From positions 1-64,000 of the forward strand of contig WRPE01000001.1 of assembly GCA_009773315.1 (NCBI GenBank): a stretch of DNA of 64,000 nucleotides, given 5' to 3'. The translations under genes and the position numbers were made by a program. Source of the stretch: Syntrophaceae bacterium. GTDB taxonomy: Bacteria > Desulfobacterota > Syntrophia > Syntrophales > Smithellaceae. Shown in pieces: positions 12,145-15,958 of the stretch. Positions within the stretch are counted from its first letter, which is position 1. Each line of letters opens with the position of its first letter. Below the pieces are notes generated by a model, which made no database searches, was not told where the DNA came from, and was given only the letters and a program-made list of their open reading frames with translations.

Positions 12145-12340
12145 TGTATTGCCTCCCTTCCCTTTTCAACCGGGCAAAAATAATCAGTCCCGAAGAACTC
12201 TTGGCATGTTTCAGAAAGTTATGATAAAAAAACAGCACTTTTTCTGATCGACTTTTTGAGGACTGCTTCCCTGTGGTGTTTTTATCCGAACAACGGAAAA
12301 AAGTCGATGACTTTCTGATGCGGATATGAGAGAAAAAAGC

Positions 12341-13147
12341 ATGGACATCAAAAAAAATCGGGCTATCGGCGTTTTCGATTCCGGCATCGGCGGGCTTACG
12401 GTTGTGCGCGCGCTCATGGAACGCCTGCCTTTTGAAAACATCATTTATTTCGGCGATACTGCGCGGGTGCCTTACGGCATTAAATCGGTGGAAACGATCA
12501 ATCGTTACGCGATGCAGATCACGGAGTTTTTGCTGAAGAAGGATGTCAAGCTCCTGATTGTCGCCTGCAACACGATGGCGGCGGTAGCCTATCAGGCCAT
12601 CCGGGACTTATCCCCCGTGCCGGTACTGGAGGTGATTGAAGCCAGCGCAAAAATCGCCGTTGCCGAAACGCGCAGCAAGACCATCGGCGTGATCGGCACA
12701 CCCGCCACAATTAACTCGAATGCTTACTCCCGCGCCATTCACCTCTTGGATCGCGACGCAAAGGTGTTTTCGCAGGCCTGTCCCTTGTTTGTCCCGCTGG
12801 TGGAAGAGGGCTGGTTTGATCATGCAGCCACAAGACTTGTCGCCCTGGAATACTTAAAGCCGGTGATGGCCGAACACATCGATACGCTGGTGCTGGGCTG
12901 CACGCATTATCCGCTTTTAAAACCGCTCTTTCAGGATATCGTAGGGAAGCAGGTCCGGCTGATCGATTCGGCGGAAGCAATGGCGGAAATTGCCGCCGAC
13001 TTGATTAATCGGGAAAATCTGAGCAACGAAACCCGTCTGTCGCCGGATTACCTTTTTTGCGTAAGCGACGTGCCGTATCGGTTTCAAACCATTGGCGAGC
13101 GTTTCCTGGGACGGACGCTCCCGCGCGTCGAGATGGTCAGGCTTTAG
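12341..13147 (+). CDS. murI: Glutamate racemase
   Basis: This enzyme makes D-glutamate for peptidoglycan. Both catalytic Cys loops are visible: the FDSGIGGLTV start, VACNTMAA with the first catalytic Cys, and GCTHYPLL with the second. At 268 residues it has the usual length. ATG 12341 is chosen because GAGAG lies upstream at suitable distance. ATG 12326 would add five residues and is possible. The upstream 180-base gap holds an 11-bp inverted repeat (ATCGACTTTTT 12247-12257, its complement 12298-12308). The ThyX-like gene follows three bases after the stop. Confidence 0.96.
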   Translation: MDIKKNRAIGVFDSGIGGLTVVRALMERLPFENIIYFGDTARVPYGIKSVETINRYAMQITEFLLKKDVKLLIVACNTMAAVAYQAIRDLSPVPVLEVIEASAKIAVAETRSKTIGVIGTPATINSNAYSRAIHLLDRDAKVFSQACPLFVPLVEEGWFDHAATRLVALEYLKPVMAEHIDTLVLGCTHYPLLKPLFQDIVGKQVRLIDSAEAMAEIAADLINRENLSNETRLSPDYLFCVSDVPYRFQTIGERFLGRTLPRVEMVRL

Positions 13148-13150
13148 CTT

Positions 13151-14611
13151 ATGAAAATTCTTCTTGCCGGTTATAATGTCGATTACGATTTAATTTGTGA
13201 GCTCAAAGATAAAAGCGCTTTGGGGCAGGATATCACGCCGGAAACTATCTCCGCCGCCTACGCGCGCATCAGCCGCAGTCCCAAATCCGTTGACGAACTG
13301 CGCGCAGACGCCCGCACCGAAGTGGACAAAGCCCGCAAGTCCAACCGCAACATCGTTTTTGAAATGGGCCATAGCTCGGTGGCCGAGCATGCCGTCTTCA
13401 ATATCGACATCATCGGCGTTTCCCGCCTGCTGGTGGAGGAAATTGAAAAGTTTCGCCTGTGCTCTTATACAGAAAAATCGCAACGCTATGTCCTGTTTGA
13501 CAAAGACTTTGTTGTGCCCGATGAAATAGCCGAGGCGGGCCTGAAGAATTTGTTTGTCGAAACGGTTCAGATACAAAATAAATTTTACCATCAGCTCTAT
13601 GGTGAACTCCGACCGTATGTCTTTGAACAAAACAAAGAACTGGCTGGAAATCCCGCCAACAAGTCCATGCTGGAAGGCTGGGCCAAGGAAGACGCGCGAT
13701 ACGCCATATCGCTTGCCACGGAAACGCAGCTGGGCATGACAATCAACGCCCGCAATCTGGAGCTGATGCTGAGAAGGCTTTCGGCGCTGCCGCTTGCCGA
13801 GGCGCGTCTCTTCAGTGAAAAGCTCTATGCCGCAACTAAAGATATTGCGCCGTCGCTTATCCGCTACACACAGGCAACGGACTATGACCGACTGACCCGC
13901 CGAAACATACAAAAACAGGTCGAAAAGCTTTTACAGAAAAATTCTACGGTGACGGGCAAAGAAAAATCGGACGCTGTTCAGTTGATGTTCGTTACACCTG
14001 AAGCTGATACGCAAGCCGCCGCCGCGCTGCTTTTTTCTTCTTCCGGTTTGAGTTACGATCACTGTCGGTATCAGGCTGCCCGGATGAGCGCGCGTGACTT
14101 GAAAATTTTATTCAAAACCGCCTTTGAAAATATTCAGCCTTATGACGCCGTGTTGCGGGAACTTGAAAATGTTCATCTGCAATTTGAGCTGATCACAAGC
14201 GCCAGTTGCTTCGCACAACTCAAGAGGCACCGTATGGCGACCATCATTGCTCAGGATTATTCCCCGCAACTGGGTGTGACCGTTCCGCCTTCCGTGCGCG
14301 CGATCGGCAGACAAAAGGAATTTATGGACATCGTGCGCCGGTCGGAAGATGCTTATTGCCAAATTAAGCATCTTCTGCCGCTTGCGGCTGCTTATATTCT
14401 GACCAATGCTCACCGCAAAAGAGCGCTCATGAAATTAAACGCCCGGGAACTTTATCATCTGTCTCGCCTGCGGGCGGACGTGCACGCTCAGTGGGACATC
14501 CGCGAGCTCTCCGAAAAAATGCTCAAACAGGCGCGTAAAGTCATGCCTCTAACACTGATGATGGCTTGCGGCAAAGATAGTTTCCCGGCGCTTCAAAAGA
14601 AAGTATTTTAG
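13151..14611 (+). CDS. Tandem ThyX-like protein (double flavin-dependent thymidylate synthase fold)
   Basis: This 486-residue protein contains two ThyX-like domains, whereas normal ThyX is about 220-250 residues. Domain 1 (about 1-240) has GHSSVAEHAVFNIDIIGVSR and SYTEKSQRYV as in ThyX, but its RHR flavin motif has become KFR (residues 100-102); it keeps an NAR helix (TINARNLELMLRRL). Domain 2 (about 250-486) keeps RHR (359-361) and NARELYHLSRLR...AQWDIR, but lacks the following SxRY part. Thymidylate synthase activity is therefore uncertain: the halves may complement each other, or the protein may have another flavin-linked role. It is co-transcribed with murI. Confidence 0.8.
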   Translation: MKILLAGYNVDYDLICELKDKSALGQDITPETISAAYARISRSPKSVDELRADARTEVDKARKSNRNIVFEMGHSSVAEHAVFNIDIIGVSRLLVEEIEKFRLCSYTEKSQRYVLFDKDFVVPDEIAEAGLKNLFVETVQIQNKFYHQLYGELRPYVFEQNKELAGNPANKSMLEGWAKEDARYAISLATETQLGMTINARNLELMLRRLSALPLAEARLFSEKLYAATKDIAPSLIRYTQATDYDRLTRRNIQKQVEKLLQKNSTVTGKEKSDAVQLMFVTPEADTQAAAALLFSSSGLSYDHCRYQAARMSARDLKILFKTAFENIQPYDAVLRELENVHLQFELITSASCFAQLKRHRMATIIAQDYSPQLGVTVPPSVRAIGRQKEFMDIVRRSEDAYCQIKHLLPLAAAYILTNAHRKRALMKLNARELYHLSRLRADVHAQWDIRELSEKMLKQARKVMPLTLMMACGKDSFPALQKKVF

Positions 14612-14941: not shown

Positions 14942-15034
14942 TCCGGCTCAATCCTATTGACAGGGTCATGCCTTGGCCATATACTCCGCCACTAAATACA
15001 CCTTTTGAACTTGATACAAATCTGGAGAGGTGTC

Positions 15035-15472
15035 ATGTTGCAAATTTATCGACACGACCTAACCGTGCCGAAAGAAGCGGAAGATCAAAACGGGCATGTC
15101 AATAATATAGAATATCTTCGCTGGATGCAGGACGCCACGGTGAAGCACTCCGAAATGACCGGCTGCACACAGGCAACCAACGTCGCCGGCGCGACCTGGG
15201 TGGTGCGAACACACAAAATTGAATACCTGAAGCCTGCGTTTGCAGGTGATCATGTCGCTGTCCTGACGTGGGTCTCCAACTTCCGCCGTGTCCAGTCGCT
15301 GCGCAAATACAGAATAATTCGTCCGTCGGATAAATCTCTGCTGGCCGTGGGAGAGACGGACTGGGTTTTTGTGGATATTCAGAAAGGGACGCTGCGCTCC
15401 ATTCCCAGAGAAGTTAGGACTACATTTGAACTCCTGCCGGAAGAGAAAGAAGTGGATATTCTTGATCTCTAA
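15035..15472 (+). CDS. Acyl-CoA thioesterase, 4HBT hot-dog family
   Basis: This is a 145-residue hot-dog thioesterase that would hydrolyse acyl-CoA thioesters. The 4-hydroxybenzoyl-CoA thioesterase signature is present near the start (DQNGHVNNIEYLRWMQD), with the acidic residue and the His/Asn turn at the active site. The body has the expected five-strand pattern (TWVVRTHKIEYLKPAFAGD, then AVLTWVS). ATG 15035 has GGAGAGG four bases upstream; an earlier in-frame TTG at 15005 is rejected. The selenoprotein gene starts 21 bases downstream, so they probably share a transcript. The natural acyl substrate is unknown. Confidence 0.88.
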   Translation: MLQIYRHDLTVPKEAEDQNGHVNNIEYLRWMQDATVKHSEMTGCTQATNVAGATWVVRTHKIEYLKPAFAGDHVAVLTWVSNFRRVQSLRKYRIIRPSDKSLLAVGETDWVFVDIQKGTLRSIPREVRTTFELLPEEKEVDILDL

Positions 15473-15493
15473 TATTGAAAGGAGGTTCCCATC

Positions 15494-15958
15494 ATGGCAA
15501 GAATCGAGCTCAACATCCAGGCGCCCAATTTTACCCTGAATGATTTTACCGGCAAGCGCACGTCTCTTGCCGATTTTGCCGGACAAAAAAATGTGCTCGT
15601 GATTTTCAATAGGGGATTTTTCTGACCCTTCTGCCGAGCGCACATGGCGCAGTTGCGCCGGGATTACGATCAATTCGTAAAGTTGAATACGGAAATTATC
15701 GTTGCCGGGCCGGAGAAGGCCGAGTCATTCAGGGATTACTGGACAAAAGAAAACCTCCCGTTTGTCGGTTTGCCCGATCCCGAGCATCATGTGTTGAAGT
15801 TGTACGGCCAGGAAGTCAAGCTGTTCAAACTGGGCCGGCTACCCGCGCAGATGCTCATTGATAAATCCGGAAAAGTACGCTTCGTGCATTACGGCCATTC
15901 GATGTCGGATATTCCACCGAATGAAGAGATTCTCAAACTGATTGAAACACAGCTATGA
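15494..15958 (+). CDS. Selenocysteine-containing peroxiredoxin-like protein (AhpC/TSA family)
   Basis: This thioredoxin-fold peroxiredoxin-like protein probably reduces peroxides or disulfides. The frame runs from ATG 15494, with a strong AAAGGAGGT site, through an in-frame TGA at 15623-15625 to a stop at 15958, giving 154 residues with Sec at 44. Before the TGA is APNFTLNDFTGKRTSLADFAG...VIFNRGFF and after it PFCRAHMAQLRRDYDQF. Cys homologues read NRGFWCPFCR, so the TGA sits exactly at the first, catalytic Cys of a CxxC (here UxxC). A SECIS-like hairpin follows at 15634-15661. A plain nonsense mutation is less likely because both flanks are perfectly conserved. Confidence 0.88.
15634..15661 (+). 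promoter_or_regulatory. Bacterial SECIS-like hairpin after the Sec UGA
   Basis: Eight bases after the TGA, CCGAGCGCA (15634-15642) pairs with TGCGCCGG (15654-15661): eight base pairs with one bulged A, closing an 11-base loop (CATGGCGCAGT) that holds two adjacent G residues. Bacterial SECIS elements lie inside the gene just downstream of the UGA, with the loop roughly 16-37 bases away. Here the loop spans 18-28 bases away. SelB binding is inferred. Confidence 0.65.

What the first reader, a model, noticed from the sequence alone, without database searches (positions are those of the whole stretch)
15494..15958. Selenocysteine peroxiredoxin-like protein hidden by an in-frame UGA
The frame reads through TGA at 15623-15625, where Cys homologues have the first Cys of NRGFWCPFCR. 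Both flanks are conserved, the upstream start has an ideal ribosome site, and a SECIS-like hairpin (15634-15661) follows at the right distance. Automatic calling would give only a truncated ORF from 15644. The UxxC peroxiredoxin-like type is, as I recall, known in selenoprotein-rich anaerobes, so it may not be a new family. Its pairing with a hot-dog thioesterase is less familiar.
Basis: partly seen in the sequence, partly recalled or inferred. Interest (0 to 1): 0.85.

Follow-up and report, generated by a model that had tools for sequence, protein, structure and literature searches.

The report
Selenocysteine peroxiredoxin-like protein, UGA-encoded
The gene really is a selenoprotein: an in-frame UGA codes for selenocysteine in a small redox protein of a known peroxiredoxin-like family, which automatic gene calling would cut short.

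Summary
Confirmed. The frame 15494-15958 (+) reads through TGA 15623-15625 to give a 154-aa peroxiredoxin-fold protein with the motif NRGFF-U-PFC. The genome carries tRNA-Sec (anticodon UCA), selA, selB and a selD that itself has an in-frame TGA. Among 148 aligned homologous loci (some duplicates) from several phyla, 147 have TGA at this codon; the exception is a decayed gene. Codon choice is frozen at codons +3 to +11 after the TGA, across phyla, as a SECIS element requires. One related genome has Cys paralogues at the Sec position. It belongs with the published 'Prx-like thiol:disulfide oxidoreductase' (UxxC) selenoproteins, already listed for Syntrophus aciditrophicus, so it is a new member of a known kind. 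The thioesterase pairing is confined to close Smithellaceae relatives. New here: the second Cys is dispensable in related subfamilies (UxxA, UxxS, CxxS), so Sec alone is the conserved redox residue, and no NCBIfam model reaches its cut-off for the window protein. Sec insertion is near certain; the catalytic role (thiol-disulfide exchange or peroxide reduction) is inferred.

The parts
15494..15958 (+). Sec-containing peroxiredoxin-like gene (154 aa, U at residue 44, Cys at residue 47)
   Evidence: Pfam AhpC-TSA PF00578 82.4 bits, cut-off 26; TGA conserved in 147 of 148 homologous loci
15623..15625 (+). UGA codon read as selenocysteine (U44)
   Evidence: Cys (TGC) at this column in paralogues L180-L183 and TGA in their sister L184
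15645..15660 (+). Apical hairpin of the bacterial SECIS: stem 15645-15650 / 15655-15660, loop AGUU 15651-15654, beginning 25 nt after the UGA
   Evidence: 86-90 of 91 distinct sequences keep each pair; pair 15647:15658 occurs as GC 61, GU 24, AU 4, UA 1; codons +8 to +11 frozen
15632..15658 (+). Codons +3 to +11 after the UGA, the main stretch of the gene under strong synonymous constraint
   Evidence: TGC 96/96, GCG 88/89, CAG 92/92, TTG 96/96, CGY 92/93
15632..15634 (+). Cys47 codon (second residue of the UxxC motif), at the position of the peroxidatic Cys of ordinary peroxiredoxins
   Evidence: replaced by Ala, Thr or Ser in related subfamilies that keep Sec or Cys at residue 44
15480..15485 (+). 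Ribosome binding site AGGAGG
   Evidence: sequence
15035..15472 (+). Hot-dog acyl-CoA thioesterase (4HBT_2), probably cotranscribed, 21 nt upstream
   Evidence: PF13279 63.5 bits; immediately adjacent only in close Smithellaceae relatives
14957..14985 (+). Promoter-like site TTGACA-17-TATACT ahead of the thioesterase
   Evidence: 11 of 12 consensus matches; consensus only

Best explanation
The locus encodes a peroxiredoxin-fold selenoprotein, probably cytosolic. During translation, UGA 15623-15625 is decoded by tRNA-Sec (UCA) delivered by SelB, which is recruited by the hairpin at 15645-15660 inside the coding sequence. The product uses Sec44, at the N-terminal (nucleophile) position of a thioredoxin/ResA-type CxxC motif, as its attacking residue, with Cys47 as resolving residue. 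The most likely job is reduction of disulfides or peroxides in an anaerobic syntrophic bacterium. Shown here: conserved UGA, sel genes in the genome, SECIS-type constraint, Sec/Cys exchange, predicted Prx fold. Inferred: that the protein is made, the nucleophile role and the substrate.
For: selC, selA, selB and selD are all above curated cut-offs; tRNA-SeC has anticodon tca; host selD carries its own in-frame TGA (GUACK). TGA is conserved in 147 of 148 homologous loci across several phyla. Synonymous freezing is concentrated at +3 to +11 and the hairpin is conserved. A UxxA subfamily has a different sequence but forms its own hairpin at a similar distance. A Sec form L184 and a Cys form L180 are sisters. 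AlphaFold model pLDDT 90 matches AhpE at Z 21.4, rmsd 1.9 over 149 residues. U44 aligns with the first Cys of the ResA motif.
Against: No expression, 75Se or mass-spectrometric evidence. Single-sequence folding of the SECIS region is not better than shuffles. An alternative pairing, 15640-15642 with 15654-15656, is equally conserved, so the exact SECIS fold is not settled. Loss of Cys47 in related subfamilies argues against an obligatory UxxC dithiol mechanism.
Confidence: 0.88

Rival explanations
1. Same selenoprotein, but the chemistry is a one-Sec peroxidase or GPx/deiodinase-like reaction: Sec44 alone reacts and is recycled by an external thiol, while Cys47 is optional.
For: Sec is kept while position 47 is Ala, Thr or Ser in related subfamilies; best fold matches include the 1-Cys peroxiredoxin AhpE; weak deiodinase-family profile hits in 14 of 17 members.
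Against: In the clade that holds the window protein Cys47 is kept, encoded as TGC in 96 of 96 sequences, and Cys47 occupies the ordinary peroxidatic position. TGC may, however, also be held by the SECIS.
Confidence: 0.35
2. The TGA is a real stop: two short ORFs, a pseudogene or a sequencing error.
For: Standard ORF calling gives a truncated ORF from 15644.
Against: TGA conserved in many independent genomes with intact flanks; SECIS-type codon freezing; Sec machinery present. The one homologue with TAA at this codon also has an upstream TAG and a frameshift, that is, it is decayed.
Confidence: 0.01
3. UGA is read as another amino acid (for example Trp) by a recoded genetic code.
For: None beyond readthrough.
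Against: Cys, not Trp, replaces it in paralogues; UGA serves as normal terminator of this gene and of others in the window; dedicated tRNA-Sec present.
Confidence: 0.01

Closest known systems
Prx-like thiol:disulfide oxidoreductase selenoproteins (UxxC; PF00578), e.g. in Syntrophus aciditrophicus, Desulfotalea, Geobacter (PMC1794560, PMC13188914)
   Same: Pfam AhpC-TSA domain, UxxC motif at the Thr/Cys positions of peroxiredoxin, anaerobic Thermodesulfobacteriota. An apparent S. aciditrophicus genome (G084) has one UGA-containing protein found by these searches, an orthologue 57% identical.
   Different: The published representative (WP_010940744.1, G. sulfurreducens) could not be aligned here. 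A second UxxC type, FYRGHW-U-PFC, is only about 32% identical, so the published label may cover more than one lineage.
SelL (UxxU) and SelL-related redox proteins, NCBIfam NF040769
   Same: Best NCBIfam hit of the window protein and matched by all 17 aligned members.
   Different: 74 bits against a cut-off of 120; one Sec, UxxC not UxxU.
Sec-peroxiredoxin (TxxU)
   Same: Same fold and Pfam family.
   Different: Sec is three residues earlier, at the Thr position; Cys47 is at the peroxidatic position.
ResA/TlpA thiol-disulfide oxidoreductases (CxxC)
   Same: Sec44/Cys47 align with the CxxC of ResA and Pro117 with its cis-Pro region.
   Different: No signal or membrane anchor seen in the sequence; the model is closer to AhpE/Bcp peroxiredoxins.

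Membership tests
Bacterial selenoproteins | In-frame UGA conserved in homologues | tested here: met
   147 of 148 homologous loci
Bacterial selenoproteins | Sec machinery (selA, selB, selC, selD) in the genome | tested here: met
Bacterial selenoproteins | Stem-loop just downstream of UGA with a G in a small apical loop (PMC1088965) | tested here: met
   loop AGUU; pairs conserved; frozen codons
Bacterial selenoproteins | Sec/Cys pairing in homologues | tested here: met
   L180-L183 have TGC where L184 has TGA
Bacterial selenoproteins | Sec shown in the protein | not testable with these tools
   needs mass spectrometry or 75Se
Prx-like thiol:disulfide oxidoreductase (UxxC) | PF00578 domain | tested here: met
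   82.4 bits, cut-off 26
Prx-like thiol:disulfide oxidoreductase (UxxC) | UxxC motif | tested here: met
   U44-P-F-C47
Prx-like thiol:disulfide oxidoreductase (UxxC) | Orthology to the published representative WP_010940744.1 | not tested
   sequence not available here; G084, taken as S. aciditrophicus from its size, has an orthologue
Peroxiredoxin proper | PxxxTxxC/U active site with Thr three residues before the peroxidatic Cys or Sec | tested here: not met
   Thr position holds Sec
SelL-related redox protein NF040769 | Score above curated cut-off | tested here: not met
   74.2 versus 120 bits for the window protein
SelL | UxxU diselenide motif | tested here: not met
   second position is TGC (Cys)

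The most novel reading that the evidence does not exclude
The gene belongs to a cross-phylum, nearly Sec-only lineage of Prx-fold proteins in which Sec alone is the conserved redox residue: related UxxA and UxxS subfamilies, with their own SECIS hairpins in the UxxA case, dispense with the second thiol. That would make it a distinct one-Sec oxidoreductase family hidden under a 'UxxC' label and absent as such from curated NCBI models.
Probability: 0.3. Interest if true: 0.5.

Novelty: new member of a known kind. Interest (0 to 1): 0.3.

Why it matters
It is a cleanly supported selenoprotein that gene callers would truncate, and it shows that selenium use in Smithellaceae (syntrophic anaerobes) includes a Prx-like enzyme. 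The wider family is almost exclusively the Sec form across several phyla and has no NCBIfam model that the window protein satisfies, so annotations of many MAGs are probably wrong at this gene. The retained Sec beside a dispensable Cys makes the catalytic question testable.

Tried and rejected
Rfam scan of the window gave no match; no bacterial SECIS family matched. Single-sequence folding gave z about 0. The second 'tRNA-Sec' hit in the genome (C16) lies in tRNA-Ser genes. A conserved operon partner across the family was sought: none; the thioesterase is adjacent only in close relatives, and other recurrent neighbours are lineage-specific. Other TGA-readthrough frames in the window were examined by eye: none resembled a selenoprotein; the long ones are adjacent genes. 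Paper searches for Smithella selenoproteins and for NCBIfam/PGAP selenoprotein papers gave nothing.

Full report
OBSERVATION. The frame 15494-15958 on the + strand translates without interruption apart from TGA at 15623-15625 (residue 44) and the final TGA. The start has AGGAGG 8 bases upstream. Under the standard code only the C-terminal 104 codons from 15644 would be called. The protein matches Pfam AhpC-TSA (82.4 bits, cut-off 26) and Redoxin.

MACHINERY. The genome holds tRNA-Sec at 71.7 bits (cut-off 47), confirmed by ARAGORN with anticodon tca, selA at 604 bits, selB at 363 bits and selD at 371 bits. selD itself has an in-frame TGA in GUACK, the known Sec site of SelD. The organism is a close relative of MAGs named Smithellaceae (95% protein identity).

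CONSERVATION. In 99 related genomes, the clear full-length orthologues read through a TGA. In the aligned set of homologous loci with E<1e-25, 147 of 148 have TGA at exactly this codon. Some loci are the same gene fetched by two searches; 96 distinct sequences of the UxxC type were used for the codon analysis. Hosts include Thermodesulfobacteriota, Chloroflexota, Actinomycetota, Bacillota, Spirochaetota and KSB1-type MAGs. The exception (L065) has TAA there, an upstream TAG and a frameshift, so it is a decayed copy. A sequencing error is excluded. Bias note: one of the two scan patterns demanded a Cys codon at the Sec position, so the scan was not tilted against Cys forms; but only the best 80 of 290 candidates were seen.

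SECIS. Across the 96 sequences, codon choice is ordinary before the UGA and after codon +12. At +3, +4, +5, +8, +9, +10 and +11 it is nearly or strongly fixed: TGC 96/96, GCG 88/89, CAG 92/92, TTG 96/96, CGY 92/93 (one weak flag at -22 rests on few sequences). This is what an RNA element inside the coding sequence produces. The best-supported hairpin is 15645-15650 with 15655-15660 and loop AGUU, starting 25 nt after the UGA. Each pair is kept in 86-90 of 91 distinct sequences, with 15647:15658 seen as GC, GU, AU and UA. The G in a small apical loop fits the bacterial SECIS description in PMC1088965. An alternative pairing (15640-15642 with 15654-15656) is nearly invariant too, so the exact fold is not settled. 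Single-sequence folding gives no signal. In the distant UxxA subfamily the sequence differs, yet a 6-bp hairpin CAUCUG-loop-CAGAUG occurs at the same place in 8 of 11 distinct sequences (one with a wobble pair) and other short hairpins fold there in the remaining three.

SEC/CYS PAIR AND SUBFAMILIES. Genome G181 encodes four paralogues with TGC at the Sec position, and genome G109 a TGA form that is sister to one of them. Position 47 is Cys in the main clade but Ala, Thr or Ser in related subfamilies. Thus Sec (or Cys) 44 is the conserved residue and Cys47 is not universal.

STRUCTURE AND MECHANISM. The AlphaFold model (pLDDT 90) is a peroxiredoxin fold: AhpE Z 21.4, rmsd 1.9, 149 residues. 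In sequence alignments U44 and C47 match the CxxC of ResA and Pro117 lies at its cis-Pro region. Established chemistry of thioredoxin folds then predicts that Sec44 attacks and Cys47 resolves. The UxxA and UxxS relatives suggest that a one-Sec reaction with external thiol is possible. Substrate and reductant are unknown.

NEIGHBOURHOOD. The 4HBT thioesterase 15035-15472 ends 21 nt upstream and is likely cotranscribed, with a promoter-like site at 14957-14985. Pairing occurs only in the closest Smithellaceae relatives, at varying distance (about 20 nt to 1.8 kb from the thioesterase end), and not in the rest of the family. It is not evidence for a shared pathway across the family.

KNOWN OR NOT. 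PMC1088965 describes a Prx-like selenoprotein family with UxxC in place of TxxU. PMC1794560 lists one 'Prx-like thiol:disulfide oxidoreductase' among 19 selenoproteins of Syntrophus aciditrophicus. PMC13188914 (2026) lists the family as PF00578, UxxC/UxxU, predicted with high confidence, not among the experimentally verified ones. Genome G084, of the same order, is one contig of 3,179,300 bases; from memory this is the size of the S. aciditrophicus genome, which I could not confirm. The only UGA-containing protein found there by these searches is the orthologue, 57% identical. I therefore file the finding as a new member of a known kind. NCBIfam's nearest model, SelL-related (NF040769), is below cut-off for the window protein.

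Noticed in passing
L060-L064, L161, L165-L169 (UxxA loci): A related Sec subfamily has UxxA (GFGUPYARKHL), with no second cysteine, and a different but equivalent SECIS-like hairpin.
   Followed up: partly
L180-L184: One genome (G181) has four Cys paralogues (CxxS/CxxT) plus one Sec form; its relative G109 has a Sec form sister to a Cys form, so Sec/Cys exchange happened within this lineage.
   Followed up: partly
L065:2998-3480: A decayed orthologue with TAA in place of the Sec TGA, an upstream TAG and a frameshift.
   Followed up: yes
window 13151-14611 (+): A 486-aa protein with two Thy1 (ThyX) matches, apparently a duplicated or fused flavin-dependent thymidylate synthase-like protein, next to a glutamate racemase-like gene (12326-13147).
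   Followed up: no
L071, upstream of the selenoprotein: The thioesterase homologue has one near-complete match at -1559..-1140 and a second partial match at -187..-23 relative to the selenoprotein start, suggesting an insertion or a partial duplication.
   Followed up: no
G000:C50:7440-8366 (L069): The host selD is itself a selenoprotein gene (in-frame TGA in GUACK).
   Followed up: yes
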